IMG/VR virus record: IMGVR_UViG_3300013120_000912
Coordinates: 1 to 20,536 of that record
Direction: 5' to 3' (one strand)
Source of the DNA: a virus
DNA length: 20,536 nt
Numbering within the stretch: position 1 is the first letter of the stretch; each line of letters opens with the position of its first letter. The notes under the pieces are model-generated. The model was not told the origin of the DNA and searched no databases. It saw only the letters and a program-made list of their open reading frames with translations. Of the stretch, positions 167-20,210 are shown one piece after another. Both the position numbers and the translations under genes were made by a program.

Positions 167-191
167 TTACTTCCTTCTCAGAAGGGAGTAA
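167..191. repeat. 12-bp near-perfect palindrome abutting the tRNA 5' end
   Basis: The arms TTACTTCCTTCT (167-178) and AGAAGGGAGTAA (180-191) are inverted complements around a single C, with one T/G wobble position. The right arm ends three bases before the mature 5' end of the tRNA at 195. In RNA a 10-12 bp stem with a minimal loop would sit directly against the RNase P cleavage site. In DNA it has the form of a dyad operator or recombinase site. No poly-T follows, so it is not an intrinsic terminator. Confidence 0.55.
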
Positions 192-194
192 CGT

Positions 195-280
195 GCCGGG
201 GTGGCGGAATTGGCAGACGCACTAGATTGCCAATCTAGTATCATTAGCATGGTGTGCGGGTTCGAGTCCCGTCCCCGGCA
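195..280 (+). tRNA. Class II tRNA: leucine-type body with glycine anticodon GCC
   Basis: A full cloverleaf can be drawn. The acceptor is GCCGGGG (195-201) with CCCCGGC (273-279), and the discriminator is A280. The D-arm has a 3-bp stem (204-206/218-220) and the leucine-type run GGAATTGGCAGACGC. The anticodon stem is CTAGA (222-226) with TCTAG (234-238), all paired. The loop is TTGCCAA (227-233), so the anticodon at 229-231 is GCC. The long variable arm is ATCAT (240-244) with ATGGT (249-253) around TAGC. The T-arm is GCGGG/TTCGAGT/CCCGT (256-272). CCA is not encoded; CAC and a T7 run (284-290) follow. The body matches bacterial tRNA-Leu, including A73, whereas the anticodon reads the glycine codon GGC; ordinary tRNA-Gly is class I without a long variable arm. 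Because bacterial LeuRS largely ignores the anticodon, leucylation is possible but not shown. Confidence 0.9.
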
Positions 281-309
281 CACTTTTTTTGGAAATGCGC
301 TTGACTATG

Positions 310-372
310 CGGGACTTGTATCCGATAATACTTGCGCTAATGATACTAGGCGGGCAATCACCGCCACCCGAC
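310..372 (-). pseudogene. Degenerate inverted second copy of the tRNA
   Basis: Read on the minus strand, this stretch repeats blocks of the tRNA at 195-280 in the same order. GGGTGGCGG (369-361) equals tRNA 199-207. GATTGCC (359-353) equals 225-231, which includes the GCC anticodon. After three mismatches, CTAGTATCATTAGC (349-336) equals 235-248. AGTCCCG (316-310) equals 265-271. The D-loop and 5' anticodon-stem part are missing and the T-arm is decayed, so a functional cloverleaf cannot be built. It is most simply a broken inverted duplicate. Because it lies opposite the tRNA, a read-through transcript would carry a 24-base antisense of the tRNA anticodon and variable arms with three mismatches. 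Confidence 0.6.
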
Positions 373-399
373 GCCGCTAGGCAAGCGGCGTCTTTTTTT
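370..399 (+). terminator. Strong intrinsic terminator
   Basis: GACGCCGC (370-377) and GCGGCGTC (385-392) form a perfect 8-bp GC-rich stem around the loop TAGGCAA, followed directly by seven T (393-399). It would stop rightward transcription coming through the tRNA region and insulate the small gene starting at 539. Confidence 0.9.
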
Positions 400-959: not shown

Positions 960-1412
960 ATGCCAGAACTCATGTCACCTGAGGACTACGTTGAGCAACG
1001 GCTTGATGACCAGATAGCTTGGTACGACGGCAAGAGCACTTCGCACAAGCGCAAGTTCCAGCGGATTCGCCTGATTGAGGTAGTTGCGGCTGCAGCAATC
1101 CCTTTTCTCTCTGCGTTCGTGTCACCCGCGTACCTCTGGCCGGTGTATCTGTCAGGTGCCCTAGGTATCGCCGTAACAGTGTGTGCAGGCAGTGTGGCTA
1201 TATTGCAGCTCCAGGAGAACTGGATAAAGTACAGAACAACAGCCGAATCACTGAAGAAGGAACGATTCCTTTTCCTGACGCAGATTGAACCTTACGATGG
1301 CGAAGACCGCTTCGAAATGTTGGTCCAACGCGTTGAGGGCCTGATATCACAGGAAAACACTAACTGGGCACAATACATGATGAAATCTGACAAGGAGAAG
1401 AAACATGGCTAA
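960..1412 (+). CDS. SLATT-domain (DUF4231-like) two-TM membrane protein, putative defence effector
   Basis: The product has 150 residues. An upstream GTG at 897 is in frame, but ATG 960 has GGAG eight bases ahead and is preferred. The order is a charged N-terminal helix (1-36), TM1 (about 38-57, VVAAAAIPFLSAFVSP), TM2 (about 60-83) and then a cytoplasmic helix with the motif W88xxYRxxAExLKxE, typical of DUF4231/SLATT proteins. The SLATT family was described as predicted pore-forming effectors attached to nucleotide-signal or TIR-type conflict systems. Here the gene overlaps the TIR-like gene by 8 bases (ATGGCTAA), so the two are translationally coupled. The inferred role is membrane permeabilisation on infection. 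The segment is less GC-rich than the structural genes, consistent with transfer as cargo. Confidence 0.8.
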   Translation: MPELMSPEDYVEQRLDDQIAWYDGKSTSHKRKFQRIRLIEVVAAAAIPFLSAFVSPAYLWPVYLSGALGIAVTVCAGSVAILQLQENWIKYRTTAESLKKERFLFLTQIEPYDGEDRFEMLVQRVEGLISQENTNWAQYMMKSDKEKKHG

Positions 1413-1800
1413 GACGATCTTCATTAGTTACGACTATGATGAGGACAAGCACTACAAGAATCTGCTTGTTGCATGGGACAAGAACAACGAGTTCGACTTC
1501 CGGTTTTATGATGGGTCCGTAACTACACGAGTCAATAGCACGGACGCCGACTACATCAAGAGCCGGATCAAGCCGAAGATCGCCGCAGCATCATGCCTGC
1601 TCTGCATCGTCGGTAAGCACACGTCTAGGAGCGGTTGGGTTGACTGGGAGCTTATGACGGCTGCGAGTCTAGGTAAGAAACTCATCGGCGTGAAAACAGA
1701 GAAGGCGAACACAAGCCCTCACAGACTCCTCAATACCGGGGCCAAGTGGGCGATGTCGTTTACCTTCGCCGCAATCAAGAAGGCGGTAGACGAAGCGTAG
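1405..1800 (+). CDS. TIR-like (ThsB/MTH538-type) signalling protein
   Basis: The product has 131 residues, and GGAG lies nine bases before the ATG. The N-terminus KTIFISYDYDED is the first beta strand and loop of TIR-like/PF08937 proteins. It is followed by NLLVAWDKNNEFDFRFYDGS (about 19-38), a central strand ASCLLCIVG (62-70), and SGWVDWELMTAASLGKKLIGV (76-96). Glu82 in the WVDWE motif is the expected catalytic glutamate of NAD-using TIR enzymes. The ThsB family in Thoeris senses phage and makes a nucleotide signal from NAD. The partner here is the SLATT membrane protein rather than a SIR2 or Macro protein. The inferred pathway is phage sensing, signal, then SLATT activation. Family membership is fairly secure; the chemistry is inferred. 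Confidence 0.8.
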   Translation: MAKTIFISYDYDEDKHYKNLLVAWDKNNEFDFRFYDGSVTTRVNSTDADYIKSRIKPKIAAASCLLCIVGKHTSRSGWVDWELMTAASLGKKLIGVKTEKANTSPHRLLNTGAKWAMSFTFAAIKKAVDEA

Positions 1801-2771: not shown

Positions 2772-3281
2772 CTACTGTGGGATGATCGCAAACCGCCGGT
2801 GCAGAGAGTAGAGCGGCCCGTAGTCCATTCGTTCAACGGATGCCTCAATGGCATCGAGGTATGCGTTACGCAGTTTACTGTTTGGTTTGCGGACATCGAT
2901 TGGCCACATGACAATCTTCCGTGTCTCTTGGCGGAGATAGATGTTCGCCATAAGCCGTGCCCATCGTCCATTGCCATCTGCAAACGGATGTATTCTCACG
3001 GCTTCGGAGTGTAGGTCAGCGGACGCTTCGACGGGGTCGTGAGCCCAGGCGTGGATGTTGTCAGCTAACTCTGATAGACATAGCCGCACTCGACCGCTGG
3101 GGACCCCGAACCTTGGCCGGTCCGGCCGGATGGTCCCCGCAAAATGCCAGGCGCGACCAAAGATCTCTTTGTGCAGCCCCAGCATCCACTCCACTGTAAA
3201 CGGGGCCATGCGCTTGGTGGCTCGGCGTTTGAGATACCGCTCTGTCACCAACTGGAGCCCGATATCTCCTTCGTCTGCCAT
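2772..3281 (-). CDS. Fic-domain protein (mobile mystery protein B-like)
   Basis: The product has 169 residues. The Fic active-site motif HPFADGNGRWAR is intact at 98-109, with catalytic His98, the nucleotide-binding DGNGR loop and Arg109. A flap-like GVPSGRV is seen at 59-65. The segment GLHKEIFGRAWHFAGT (35-50) and the overall length resemble the family named mobile mystery protein B. Fic enzymes usually transfer AMP from ATP to a target protein hydroxyl. I see no clear inhibitory S/TxxxE(G/N) motif in this protein or in its partner. The start ATG lies 6 bases after the stop of the XRE gene, so the two form one operon, with the regulator first. The likely role is the toxin of a stabilising or phage-exclusion cassette. 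Confidence 0.85.
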   Translation of the reverse strand: MADEGDIGLQLVTERYLKRRATKRMAPFTVEWMLGLHKEIFGRAWHFAGTIRPDRPRFGVPSGRVRLCLSELADNIHAWAHDPVEASADLHSEAVRIHPFADGNGRWARLMANIYLRQETRKIVMWPIDVRKPNSKLRNAYLDAIEASVERMDYGPLYSLHRRFAIIPQ

Positions 3282-3287
3282 TGCCGA

Positions 3288-3668
3288 CTATGCCCATAGC
3301 GCGTAGTTGGATCCCCTTAGCAGCCTCTGGCTCGCCCCCCTTCGAAACTGCGCCGCATCTTTCTCAGTAATAAACCGATTTTCCAGTGCAGCATTACCCC
3401 TGGTAAGTTGTACCAGCCATTGGGCTTTGCCATCAGCCTGCCTTCGGCGAACCGCAGAAACTGTACTCTCACCCACGATGCCAATACGCACACCCAGCAC
3501 GCCTGCCATTGCGCAGATCACGGCGTAGGAATCCGTACCCCGACCCCGCAATGCACGCTGGACTGTAGCCACCCCGAGTCCCGCATGCCGAGCCAGGTTC
3601 GCTATGGAAAGGCCAAGCTCACGGCGCCGCTTGTCGAGAACCGCCAGTATGTCATGCTGCGTAGCCAT
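3288..3668 (-). CDS. XRE-family transcriptional regulator, probable antitoxin partner of Fic
   Basis: The product has 126 residues from ATG 3668, preceded by AGGAGGTGA, an excellent Shine-Dalgarno; the in-frame ATG at 3704 lacks one. Residues 4-60 form a helix-turn-helix of the lambda-repressor class (ILAVLDKRRRELGLSIANLA, then VATVQRALRGRG). The C-terminal part, QWLVQLTRGNAALENRF to RLLRGSNYALW, matches the LVxxxQGTxALExQ...LLxGSxxxLW tail I associate with a subset of XRE regulators. It probably binds the palindrome at 3720-3747 and represses its own operon. Antitoxin function is inferred from its position directly upstream of fic. Confidence 0.8.
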   Translation of the reverse strand: MATQHDILAVLDKRRRELGLSIANLARHAGLGVATVQRALRGRGTDSYAVICAMAGVLGVRIGIVGESTVSAVRRRQADGKAQWLVQLTRGNAALENRFITEKDAAQFRRGASQRLLRGSNYALWA

Positions 3669-17574: not shown

Positions 17575-18000
17575 CTAGTCGTTGGGTCCCCCGCGTTTGG
17601 CGGCGATGTCGGCGTATTCCTCGGCGGACAGGCCGGGGAAGGGGTTCTCCCCGGCTGGGGGGCGATCGGCCTTGGCCATGTCGGAGAAGGCGTACTTCAG
17701 CAGGTCGGCGGCGGCCTTTCGCCGGGTTTCGGCGTTGACGCCTTCGGCCTTCTCGTCGGTCAGGCGAAGCAGCACACCCACCGCGGGCCGGGCACCGCGC
17801 CAACCGAGCCGGCGGGCGGCGTTGAGGTACTCGGCCGCGGCGGCGTTGATTCGCGGTTGCAGGTCCGGACGAAGCTCCCCCCGGGAAATTCGCGCGACCT
17901 CCACCTCGGTCAGGCCGAAGGCGTCGGCAATGTGGGCGCAGCCGTGCTCGGCCTTGGCGATGGCCAGGATCAGTTCTTCGTCGTCGATGTTTCGCTTCAT
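17575..18000 (-). CDS. Probable terminase small subunit
   Basis: The product has 141 residues from ATG 18000, which overlaps the ABC-GNAT stop by 4 bases. Residues 8-45 form a helix-turn-helix (EELILAIAKAEHGCAHIADA, then GLTEVEVARISRGE), expected for DNA recognition by small terminases. A helical middle (PRINAAAAEYLNAARRLG) and C-terminal KAAADLLKYAFSDMAKADRP follow, with a final FPGLSAEEYADIAAK that may contact the large subunit. It lies immediately upstream of the large subunit. The length is typical of the family. Confidence 0.75.
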   Translation of the reverse strand: MKRNIDDEELILAIAKAEHGCAHIADAFGLTEVEVARISRGELRPDLQPRINAAAAEYLNAARRLGWRGARPAVGVLLRLTDEKAEGVNAETRRKAAADLLKYAFSDMAKADRPPAGENPFPGLSAEEYADIAAKRGGPND

Positions 18001-19094
18001 CCGCTGTCGCGTGAGCCGAGGAAACAGAAGCTCGCGACGGCCCGGGCGGTCGACTCGCTGCCGGCCAAGCGGCGGTTGGTGTTTCGCCCGCGGCCGCACG
18101 GGGAGAACTTCACCGTCCGCCAGTTCGGGCTGCGCCGCAGGTGGGCGATCATCGCCGGATGGCCGGTGGTGATGCCCACCCGCTTGCCGCGCCGCCGATA
18201 CAGTTCGCACACCGCGTCGAGTGTTTGCCCGGCGATACCCACGCCCTGGAAGTCCGGCAGCGTGACCAGTCGCGTGACCCGCACGGCGTGCCGGCGCCCG
18301 GCGGCCTGGAGCACGGCCACAAAGCAAACCGGGGCGTCTTCCCACGTGGCCAGGTAACACTGGGCCGCGCTGTGCAAGCTGCCGCTCAAATAGTGATGCT
18401 TCGCAAACAGTCGCCACGCCTCACGGCTGCAACGAAAGATGCGGAGTGTGATCTTCGGCCGTCGAAGGCACCCCCGGGCCAACTGGAAGGTCGCCATGTC
18501 CACGACCCAGTCGGGGCCGAGCCATTCGAGAATGTCGTAATGGCATGAGACGGCCACGAAACGTTTGCCCAGCCCCTTGGGGGCCAGTCGGCCGGAACGA
18601 ATGGCCTTGGCCACCGCGGCCGAGCCGATCTTCGCCACCGTCCGGTCCACCACGGAGGCGAACTCGTCGAAGACCACAACGTCGCGGTCGCTCAGCAGGG
18701 CGCGGGCCAGGTCGCAGCGGAAACGCTCGCCGTTGCTCAGCACGACATACGGCTTGATCCACGCCGGCGGGCTGGAAAACCCCACGGCCGTGAGGGTACG
18801 GGTGATGGTCTTGATGGGCAGGTCACCAAACCCGTCGATGACCGCCTTGTCGGTCGGCCAGGGGCGGGCCTCATGTACCGCCCCGCCGAAGGCCCGCCGG
18901 GCAATGGTGCTCTTGCCGCTGCCGGAGGGGCCCACGATCGCGCCCACGCGCCACGGCTCGGCGAGGTCGGGCACCTCGACGGTGAATTGCTCCCGCGCGG
19001 TTTTCGGCAAGGCCACGTCGAACAGCCCCGCCACCTGCTGCACGCGGAAACTGTCGTGCACGGGGCATTGGACTACAGCATCGACAACCGGCAT
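17997..19094 (-). CDS. ABC-type ATPase fused to a GNAT acyltransferase
   Basis: The product has 365 residues from ATG 19094 with GAGGGG ahead, overlapping the ParB-like gene by 22 bases. ATPase half: Walker A GPSGSGKS (55-62), signature-like LSNGERFRCDLARAL (119-133), Walker B DVVVFDEFASVVD (138-150) and H-loop SCHYDILEWL with His185. No transmembrane segments are present, so it is a soluble ABC ATPase rather than a transporter. GNAT half: about 215-340, with HHYLSG (233-238) and the acyl-CoA loop RLVTLPDFQGVGIAGQTL (275-292). The coupling of ParB, ABC-GNAT and terminase suggests action on phage DNA. Phage Mu Mom, a GNAT-fold adenine-modifying enzyme, is the nearest precedent I know. The substrate is unknown. 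Confidence 0.8.
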   Translation of the reverse strand: MPVVDAVVQCPVHDSFRVQQVAGLFDVALPKTAREQFTVEVPDLAEPWRVGAIVGPSGSGKSTIARRAFGGAVHEARPWPTDKAVIDGFGDLPIKTITRTLTAVGFSSPPAWIKPYVVLSNGERFRCDLARALLSDRDVVVFDEFASVVDRTVAKIGSAAVAKAIRSGRLAPKGLGKRFVAVSCHYDILEWLGPDWVVDMATFQLARGCLRRPKITLRIFRCSREAWRLFAKHHYLSGSLHSAAQCYLATWEDAPVCFVAVLQAAGRRHAVRVTRLVTLPDFQGVGIAGQTLDAVCELYRRRGKRVGITTGHPAMIAHLRRSPNWRTVKFSPCGRGRNTNRRLAGSESTARAVASFCFLGSRDSG

Positions 19095-19624
19095 TTGAGC
19101 CCCTCGGCCGTCAGCCGCTCGAACAGCCGCCGCTGGTGCGGCTCGTCGTTGCACTCGACGACCACTTGGAAGGCCTCGGGAATCGTGACGTCATCGTCCA
19201 GGGCGCCGGCGTCGAGGGCGGCGATCATGCCGTCGATATCGTCCCGCCGAAAGCCGGTGGCCGCCGGCAGGTTCAATTCCGTCTGATCCAACTCGGCCAG
19301 CAGTTCGGCCAATTGGTCCGGTTGATACTGCCCCTGGGCGCCGGGGTTATTCAGCGCGATGTTCAGGGCCTTGGCCTGCTCGTCGCTGACCCCCTCGAGG
19401 AAAACGCACGGCACCTTCGCGTCGGGCACCGCCCGCCGGGCGTTGGCCTTGAGCCGCTGGTGCCCGCCGATCAGCAGCCGGTCTTCCCGCCGGGCGATCA
19501 CCGGATCGACGAACCCGTGCGTCTCCAGCAGCGCCGTCAGCCGCTTCAGGGCCGCCTCGTCGATCGCCCGCGGATTGTACGGCGCCGGCACCAGCGAGTC
19601 GGGGGTGACGTACTCGATCTGCAT
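19073..19624 (-). CDS. ParB-like (ParB/Srx fold) protein
   Basis: The product has 183 residues from ATG 19624; the frame upstream is longer but overlaps DUF2335 coding. Residues 8-60 contain the ParB core: PDSLVPAPYNPRAID, then ETHGFVDPVIARREDRLLIG with GGHQRLKA (53-60), the nucleotide-binding GxxR element. Then come NNPGAQGQYQPDQLAELLAE and GFRRDDIDGMI. The C-terminal FQVVVECNDEPHQRRLFERL, then TAEGLKCRLSML, is a tail often attached to phage ParB-domain proteins. It lacks a partition-type HTH and there is no parA, so plasmid partition is unlikely. ParB/Srx domains bind CTP or ATP; some are reported as nucleases. It is coupled to the ABC-GNAT fusion. Confidence 0.85.
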   Translation of the reverse strand: MQIEYVTPDSLVPAPYNPRAIDEAALKRLTALLETHGFVDPVIARREDRLLIGGHQRLKANARRAVPDAKVPCVFLEGVSDEQAKALNIALNNPGAQGQYQPDQLAELLAELDQTELNLPAATGFRRDDIDGMIAALDAGALDDDVTIPEAFQVVVECNDEPHQRRLFERLTAEGLKCRLSML

Positions 19625-19706
19625 GGTTCGACAGGAGGAGCCCCCTGGCGCGATTAATCCGGGTCCCTGTATCCTCGTCCTTTGCCGGGACAAGGGCCGC
19701 GCTTTA
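19625..19706. other. Intergenic region before parB-like gene
   Basis: Eighty-two bases separate the DUF2335 stop and the ParB-like start. The minus strand contains GGGGGCTCCTCC near the start codon as a possible ribosome binding site. No clear terminator or promoter is visible. Confidence 0.3.
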
Positions 19707-20210
19707 TCATTGCTCGTCGGGAGTCTCTTCTGCCTCTGGTGACTTGGCTCTTCTGCCAAGGATGAACACCGTCACCAAGCTGACCAGACCGCCGCCACCT
19801 ATCACGGAACTGCTGATCCCTCCGGACAACCCCGGGTTCAGCCAGTTGATCAGCACCGCGCAAACCATGGCAGCGACTACGATCACTAGAGCAAATACCT
19901 GTCCCAGCCTTGCCTCGCGCCGCTCGGCCCGGTCGTCTTCGATCTGTCCGTCGACGACCTTGGTCTCCATTTGTCGGCGGTGAGCCGACTGGTTCTCAGC
20001 CATCGTCAGAATCCGATCTGCTGCACCGGGGATGAGTTGATCGTATCCCTTGAGAACCTGTGGAGGCGGTATCGGCCCCTGGAAGGCCATCTCAACTGAA
20101 GTGATCTTCCCCTCCGGCATCTGCGCCGAGGGAGCCGACTCTCGCCGTGAGCTCTTGCTATTAACCTGCTTTGGAAGCTGGCTGTTCCTTCGCTTACGCT
20201 TTGCAGCCAT
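19707..20210 (-). CDS. DUF2335 membrane protein
   Basis: The product has 167 residues from ATG 20210; a GTG two codons earlier is also possible. A basic disordered N-terminus is followed by GPIPPPQVLKGYDQLIPGAA then DRILTMAENQSAHRRQMETK (46-83), the signature of DUF2335. A helix leads to two transmembrane segments at about 103-123 and 131-152, and an acidic tail. DUF2335 proteins are common in prophages and genomic islands, and their role is not known. It overlaps the small upstream gene by 17 bases. Its place ahead of the packaging genes suggests an early or moron-type gene. Confidence 0.8.
   Translation of the reverse strand: MAAKRKRRNSQLPKQVNSKSSRRESAPSAQMPEGKITSVEMAFQGPIPPPQVLKGYDQLIPGAADRILTMAENQSAHRRQMETKVVDGQIEDDRAERREARLGQVFALVIVVAAMVCAVLINWLNPGLSGGISSSVIGGGGLVSLVTVFILGRRAKSPEAEETPDEQ

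What the first reader, a model, noticed from the sequence alone, without database searches (positions are those of the whole stretch)
195..280. A tRNA with a leucine-type class II body and a glycine GCC anticodon
Seen: all stems pair, the variable arm is long with a 5-bp stem, the discriminator is A, and the 7-base loop is TTGCCAA with anticodon GCC. Known: bacterial tRNA-Gly is class I, bacterial LeuRS largely ignores the anticodon, and nematode nev-tRNAs with long variable arms and Gly/Ile anticodons can be charged with leucine. Inferred: this tRNA may insert leucine at GGC. The neighbouring genes use GGC for essential glycines: all three Walker A glycines of the ABC-GNAT protein and the first glycine of the Fic DGNGR loop. 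Active mistranslation would therefore be harmful. Alternatives are a toxic or abortive device, a decoy for anticodon nucleases, a stress-induced mistranslation tRNA, or a silent relic.
Basis: partly seen in the sequence, partly recalled or inferred. Interest (0 to 1): 0.82.

Follow-up and report, generated by a model that had tools for sequence, protein, structure and literature searches.

The report
Wrong-anticodon tRNA with antisense RNA partner
A phage fragment carries a tRNA built like a leucine tRNA but bearing a glycine anticodon, followed by what looks like a small antisense RNA gene made to pair with it; the same two-RNA unit, with other wrong anticodons and matching antisense RNAs, recurs in unrelated bacteria and looks like a protein-free toxin-antitoxin pair that has not been described.

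Summary
In detail: window 195-280 is an intact class II tRNA with a leucine body (A73, Leu D-arm, long variable arm) and anticodon GCC. Downstream, a sigma70-type promoter (301-329) precedes a ~65-nt RNA gene whose 5' end (336-359) pairs with the tRNA's anticodon loop and variable arm; 361-369 pairs with its acceptor/D-arm, and a rho-independent terminator follows.

This is a recurrent two-RNA module. I found 20: the window, a second virus contig, one Acidobacteriota genome and 17 tRNAs in 16 of 395 Gemmatimonadota genomes. Anticodons are GCC, GCG, CGC, GGC, GTC or GTG, and each antisense matches its own tRNA. Own-pair scores are mostly 39-51.5; swapped pairs average 21.9; 30 ordinary Leu tRNAs from the same genomes never exceed 30.5. 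Between homologous modules, 59 of 68 tRNA changes are compensated in the antisense RNA. No protein gene recurs nearby.

Best explanation (inferred): the tRNA is charged with leucine, misreads abundant codons and is toxic; the sRNA is its antisense antitoxin. I found no published description. Pairing is strongly supported by sequence; expression, charging and toxicity are untested.

The parts
167..191 (+). Leader hairpin abutting the tRNA 5' end (TTACTTCCTTCTCAGAAGGGAGTAA), -12.7 kcal/mol; role unknown. Similar hairpins precede six other module tRNAs (L346-L349, L352, L358), but the feature is not significant over the whole set.
195..280 (+). Class II tRNA, leucine body, anticodon GCC at 229-231, loop 227-233 TTGCCAA, A73; putative toxin / mis-decoding tRNA
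301..329 (+). Promoter of the antisense RNA: TTGACT (301-306), 17-nt spacer, GATAAT (324-329), 10 of 12 consensus matches
336..399 (+). Predicted antisense sRNA (start inferred from the promoter, about 335-337)
336..359 (+). Antisense segment 1: 21 of 24 bases complementary to tRNA 225-248 (anticodon loop, 3' anticodon stem, variable arm)
   Evidence: score 45.5 against shuffle mean 19.1, z 10.2
361..369 (+). Antisense segment 2: CCGCCACCC, exact complement of tRNA 199-207 (GGGTGGCGG, acceptor/D-arm)
370..399 (+). Rho-independent terminator of the sRNA: 9-bp stem GACGCCGCT/AGCGGCGTC followed by T7

Best explanation
The locus is a two-RNA module. RNA 1 is a leucine-bodied tRNA whose anticodon was replaced by that of another, usually very common, codon (here GCC, reading GGC/GGU). 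RNA 2 is an independently promoted small RNA whose 5' end is antisense to the anticodon arm of that tRNA (here also the variable arm and the acceptor/D-arm) and which ends in a terminator. Likely mechanism: LeuRS, which in E. coli ignores the anticodon, charges the tRNA with leucine; free tRNA would put leucine at glycine codons and poison the proteome; the sRNA invades the anticodon arm and keeps the tRNA inactive. If sRNA synthesis stops (loss of the element, phage takeover or shutoff of host transcription), the labile sRNA would vanish and the stable tRNA would act, giving addiction or abortive infection. Shown by sequence: the tRNA structure, the antisense gene with promoter and terminator, recurrence, co-variation, and absence at ordinary Leu tRNAs. 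Inferred: expression, leucylation, toxicity, antitoxin action, trigger.
For: Inverted repeat between tRNA and downstream gene, with promoter and terminator. The architecture recurs in 20 modules. Own-pair complementarity is 39-51.5 in 18 of 22 tested loci, against 21.9 +/- 4.1 for 462 swaps (99th percentile 34) and at most 30.5 for 30 ordinary Leu tRNAs of the same genomes, p = 2.8e-7. Compensatory change: 59 of 68 tRNA differences between homologous modules matched on both sides, 3 by wobble, 6 broken. In most modules the antisense starts 1-7 nt after a recognisable -10 box. Window tRNA and sRNA alone -37.6 and -10.4 kcal/mol, complex -64.5. The sRNA of L031 scores 44 with its own tRNA but 23 with the genome's normal tRNA-Gly(GCC). 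Anticodons mostly read the commonest codons: GCG, GGC, GCC, CGC, GAC rank 1, 2, 3, 6, 8; CAC ranks 25. No protein family recurs nearby. Decay fits a TA pair: in L351 the acceptor stem is broken and the antisense gone, while L026 keeps two extra sRNAs fitting other tRNAs. E. coli LeuRS ignores the anticodon (PMC9976931).
Against: No expression, charging or toxicity data. Upstream of most Gemmatimonadota module tRNAs no sigma70 promoter is recognisable, so how the tRNA is expressed is unclear; the scan also fails for about half of ordinary Leu tRNAs. Most modules lie in chromosomes with no obvious mobile element, so addiction is not evident. L002 lacks a clear sRNA promoter. L026 has its matching antisense at +347, not directly downstream. 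No related phage carrying the module was found.
Confidence: 0.6

Rival explanations
1. Regulated mistranslation: the same pairing, but the purpose is a controlled stress response (statistical proteome, slowed growth), with the sRNA as a regulator rather than an antitoxin.
For: Mostly chromosomal, without mobile genes; separate promoters for the two RNAs, the tRNA one not sigma70-like in Gemmatimonadota; up to two modules in a genome (G265).
Against: Patchy distribution (16 of 395 Gemmatimonadota, 1 of 247 Acidobacteriota, none of 149 Planctomycetota) and rapid change of anticodon between homologous modules look more like a selfish or defence element. A phage copy is hard to explain this way.
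Confidence: 0.2
2. Decoy for anticodon nucleases or GNAT toxins that act on tRNA-Gly and other tRNAs: the Leu body offers a bait loop.
For: The loop TTGCCAA equals that of ordinary tRNA-Gly(GCC); a phage copy; the window has a defence-like pair SLATT + ThsB-TIR next to it.
Against: A bait needs no antisense RNA that masks exactly the loop it offers; no nuclease or toxin gene recurs near the modules.
Confidence: 0.07
3. The sRNA is the effector and the tRNA its sponge, or the sRNA protects the cell from foreign mis-decoding tRNAs (anti-tRNA immunity).
For: L026 has three tandem sRNAs with different anti-anticodon parts but one tRNA nearby; one unit fits the GTC tRNA of another genome.
Against: In nearly all loci the sRNA matches its adjacent tRNA best and, where tested, spares the normal isoacceptor.
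Confidence: 0.08
4. Relic or hitch-hiker: a tRNA fragment with a chance inverted copy, for example an attachment site.
For: Phage and island ends often carry tRNA pieces.
Against: Intact folds, recurrence in distant lineages, compensatory changes, promoter and terminator, and absence beside ordinary Leu tRNAs.
Confidence: 0.02

Closest known systems
Type VIII toxin-antitoxin, SdsR/RyeA of E. coli
   Same: Toxin and antitoxin are both small RNAs, the antitoxin acting by base pairing (PMC6610125).
   Different: SdsR/RyeA are cis-encoded on opposite strands; here the antitoxin is a separate gene on the same strand and the toxin would be a tRNA acting in decoding.
CreTA (CRISPR-regulated toxin RNA that sequesters rare tRNAs)
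   Same: RNA-only addiction logic aimed at decoding (PMC8501985).
   Different: CreT is a mini-ORF RNA that ties up a rare tRNA and CreA is a crRNA variant needing Cascade; here the toxin is itself a tRNA and the antitoxin a plain antisense RNA.
Type I toxin-antitoxin (hok/sok-like)
   Same: Antisense RNA antitoxin with its own promoter; a labile antitoxin against a stable toxin RNA would give addiction.
   Different: No toxin protein or toxin mRNA.
Nematode nev-tRNAs and other tRNAs with isotype/anticodon conflict
   Different: No antisense RNA partner known to me; eukaryotic. tRNAscan-SE 2.0 only flags anticodon/isotype conflicts (PMC8450103).
T-box riboswitches
   Same: An RNA with a GGC-like specifier that pairs with an anticodon, followed by a terminator.
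   Different: Pairing here covers 12-24 nt of one particular tRNA and co-varies with its stem; no gene is controlled downstream; the RNA starts at its own promoter.

Membership tests
Functional bacterial tRNA-Leu (body) | Class II fold, Leu D-arm, A73 | tested here: met
Functional bacterial tRNA-Leu (body) | Leu anticodon (A35) | tested here: not met
   Anticodon GCC
Bacterial tRNA-Gly | Class I body like host tRNA-Gly | tested here: not met
   63% identity to an ordinary tRNA-Gly(GCC), class II arm present
Type VIII RNA-RNA toxin-antitoxin | Two non-coding RNAs with base-pairing complementarity | tested here: met
Type VIII RNA-RNA toxin-antitoxin | One RNA toxic, neutralised by the other | not testable with these tools
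   needs growth assays
Type VIII RNA-RNA toxin-antitoxin | Both RNAs expressed | tested here: inconclusive
   Promoter and terminator found for most sRNAs; tRNA promoter recognised in few
CreTA | Associated cas genes, repeat-like creA, mini-ORF toxin | tested here: inconclusive
   No protein family recurs near 20 loci, so a linked cas operon is not a constant feature; the window genes checked are not cas; the toxin candidate is a tRNA, not a mini-ORF RNA. Repeat-like sequence was not searched for.
Type I toxin-antitoxin | Small hydrophobic toxin ORF overlapping the antisense target | tested here: not met
   The antisense target is a tRNA
T-box riboswitch | Match to the T-box model | tested here: not met
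   cmscan with all Rfam families on the window finds only the tRNA
Group I intron-split tRNA-Leu | Anticodon-like GCC is the start of an intron | tested here: not met
   Contiguous anticodon stem in the window; four other pattern hits (L005, L014, L034, L040) look like this by eye and were set aside

The most novel reading that the evidence does not exclude
A new class of protein-free toxin-antitoxin or abortive-infection system in which the toxin is a leucine tRNA given the anticodon of an abundant codon and the antitoxin is a dedicated antisense RNA that masks its anticodon arm; anticodon and antisense co-evolve, and the module moves between bacteria and phages.
Probability: 0.55. Interest if true: 0.95.

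Novelty: categorically new. Interest (0 to 1): 0.9.

Why it matters
If true, cells and phages carry tRNAs that rewrite the genetic code on command and hold them in check with dedicated antisense RNAs. That would be a toxin-antitoxin class with no protein part, a natural example of switchable codon mis-assignment, and a source of specific RNA tools for silencing single tRNAs. It also gives a meaning to some of the wrong-anticodon tRNAs that annotation programs flag as isotype conflicts. Each module carries its own test: express the tRNA with and without its sRNA.

Tried and rejected
Attachment-site, relic and group I intron readings (rejected: contiguous anticodon stem, promoter/terminator, swap test, compensation). 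Four genome hits (L005, L014, L034, L040) look like intron-split tRNA-Leu and many others are chance matches in coding DNA. Leu-bodied tRNAs with GCC but no antisense (L003/L032, L006, L007, L011, L017, L028, L033) are not counted as modules; several have weak acceptor stems. Viral tRNAs with other wrong anticodons (TCC, GTC, TGG, TCA, TTA, CTA and others) showed no antisense. Ser-bodied wrong-anticodon tRNAs in 200 Gemmatimonadota: none; the 28 genomes hit carry ordinary tRNA-Tyr. Relaxed viral search: no new tRNA. A tail-gene search found no relatives; terminase relatives carry no tRNA in the parts held. A leader hairpin before the tRNA is present in several modules but not significant overall. 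A first identity calculation was wrong (parsing fault) and was replaced. Ten literature searches gave no description of a tRNA paired with an antisense antitoxin; no bioRxiv preprints were held, so an unpublished description is possible.

Full report
Observation. The window is a complete IMG/VR virus record of 20,536 bases, probably a fragment, with phage genes mostly on the minus strand. At 195-280 lies one tRNA, 58.6 bits with Rfam tRNA. It has a leucine body with A73, a Leu-type D arm, a 5-bp variable stem and the loop TTGCCAA with anticodon GCC. Its closest tested relatives apart from other module tRNAs are Leu isoacceptors (76%), against 63% for an ordinary tRNA-Gly(GCC) and at most 68% for any ordinary non-Leu tRNA tested.

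What was missed. A repeat search found an inverted repeat between 225-248 in the tRNA and 336-359 downstream, 21 of 24 positions. The downstream copy lies directly behind a sigma70-type promoter TTGACT-N17-GATAAT (301-329) and before a rho-independent terminator at 370-399: a predicted RNA of about 65 nt starting with the antisense. A second segment, CCGCCACCC at 361-369, is complementary to tRNA 199-207. Predicted energies are -37.6 (tRNA), -10.4 (sRNA 5' part) and -64.5 kcal/mol (complex).

Recurrence. A pattern for Leu-bodied tRNAs with GCC, scanned over 84,980 species genomes and IMG/VR, gave about a dozen true tRNAs. L023 (Acidobacteria), L031 (Gemmatimonadota) and the virus contig L002 have an antisense downstream of the tRNA; L023 and L031 show promoter, antisense and terminator as in the window, while L002 lacks a clear promoter. 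Searching 395 Gemmatimonadota genomes for any non-Leu anticodon on a Leu body gave 18 tRNAs in 16 genomes, with anticodons GTC, CGC, GTG, GCG, GCC, GGC and TGG. Sixteen of the 18 have a downstream antisense to their own anticodon arm; one more module, L335, has a different D loop. In all, 20 modules: GCC 6, GCG 7, CGC 3, GGC 2, GTC 1, GTG 1. Acidobacteriota gave 1 of 247 genomes, Planctomycetota none with an antisense among 149 (2 pattern hits; the antisense was tested in one, L033/L328; the other reads as a CTA-anticodon tRNA).

Tests. Complementarity in the 150 nt downstream was 39-51.5 for 18 of 22 loci; 462 swapped pairs averaged 21.9 (99th percentile 34); 30 ordinary Leu tRNAs of the same genomes reached at most 30.5; the 150 nt upstream of modules reached at most 28.5; p = 2.8e-7. 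The score picks the best local alignment, so the swap and ordinary-tRNA controls are what count. The exceptions: L355 (TGG) has none; L351 has a broken acceptor stem; L026/L350 has its match at +347; L347 scores 32. Between homologous modules, 59 of 68 differences at paired tRNA positions are matched by changes in the sRNA, 3 are kept by wobble, 6 are broken (comparisons within a group are not independent). One homologous family (L335, L356, L357) has even changed anticodon between GCC and GCG with the matching change in the sRNA. In most modules the antisense begins 1-7 nt after a recognisable -10 box. Some antisense RNAs are bipartite, also covering the acceptor/D-arm (window, L335, L031).

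Context. ORFs from 20 loci compared all against all show no recurrent neighbour (one cluster in 3 loci): the module appears to consist of RNA only. In L026 three tandem sRNA units follow one tRNA and precede infC; one of them fits the GTC tRNA of L342, like an orphan antitoxin. In L351 tRNA and antisense have decayed together, the intact copy L359 being in the same genome. G001 has an ordinary tRNA-Gly(GCC), which the module's sRNA pairs with poorly (23 against 44). The anticodons mostly read the commonest codons of these GC-rich genomes.

Mechanism. In E. coli leucine identity rests on A73 and not on the anticodon or the variable arm (PMC9976931), so leucylation of these tRNAs is expected from established knowledge but not shown. 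A leucine carrier that reads GGC, CGC, GCC, GCG, GAC or CAC should be toxic; an antisense RNA covering the anticodon arm would keep it silent. This is the logic of a toxin-antitoxin pair made of two RNAs. A regulated mistranslation programme uses the same parts and cannot be excluded. Steps shown: structure, pairing, co-variation, specificity against ordinary tRNAs. Steps inferred: transcription, charging, toxicity, neutralisation, trigger.

Known systems. The nearest are type VIII pairs of two sRNAs (SdsR/RyeA, PMC6610125) and CreTA (PMC8501985); neither has a tRNA as toxin or an antisense RNA against a tRNA. Literature searches found no description; no bioRxiv preprints were held. Filing it as type VIII would need the toxicity test.

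Limits. Everything is sequence-based; many carriers are metagenome-assembled genomes (G001 is a complete chromosome, CP070823.1). The patterns fix parts of the D arm and miss variants. The host of the window phage is unknown; terminase relatives in IMG/VR are 47-66% identical and carry no tRNA in the parts held.

Noticed in passing
window 960-1800 (+): Adjacent genes for a SLATT/DUF4231 2TM protein and a ThsB-type TIR protein, a possible Thoeris-like defence pair next to the tRNA module.
   Followed up: partly
window 2772-3668 (-): Fic/DOC protein behind an HTH protein; the two look like a toxin-antitoxin-type pair.
   Followed up: no
window 17997-19759 (-): ABC-ATPase/GNAT fusion next to a ParB-N-like protein, upstream of the terminase.
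   Followed up: no
L337 2381-2780 (minus strand coordinates): Three tandem sRNA-like units behind one GCC tRNA and before infC, sharing GTGGCGGTTYYAYCG (anti D-arm) but with different anti-anticodon parts; possible orphan antitoxins.
   Followed up: partly
L028 307-1020: Tandem array of four Leu-bodied tRNAs with anticodons GCC, CGC, GCC, CGC, period about 207 nt, in an alphaproteobacterial genome; no sRNA of the module type seen.
   Followed up: partly
L003 7833-7917, L006 3355-3438, L007 7215-7295: Leu-like tRNAs with GCC, very similar bodies but poor acceptor stems, in a Firmicutes element (also L032), a Clostridia and a Chitinophagaceae genome; possible tRNA mimics.
   Followed up: no
L283, L292, L305, L310: Identical or near-identical Leu-bodied tRNAs with TCA anticodon in four viral contigs, candidate opal suppressors.
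   Followed up: no
upstream of tRNAs in L344, L346, L348, L349, L352: A shared GC-rich element (about CGACTCG...GCGCGC.TCGCAG.GCGCG) in place of a sigma70 promoter, perhaps an operator or another sigma factor's promoter.
   Followed up: no
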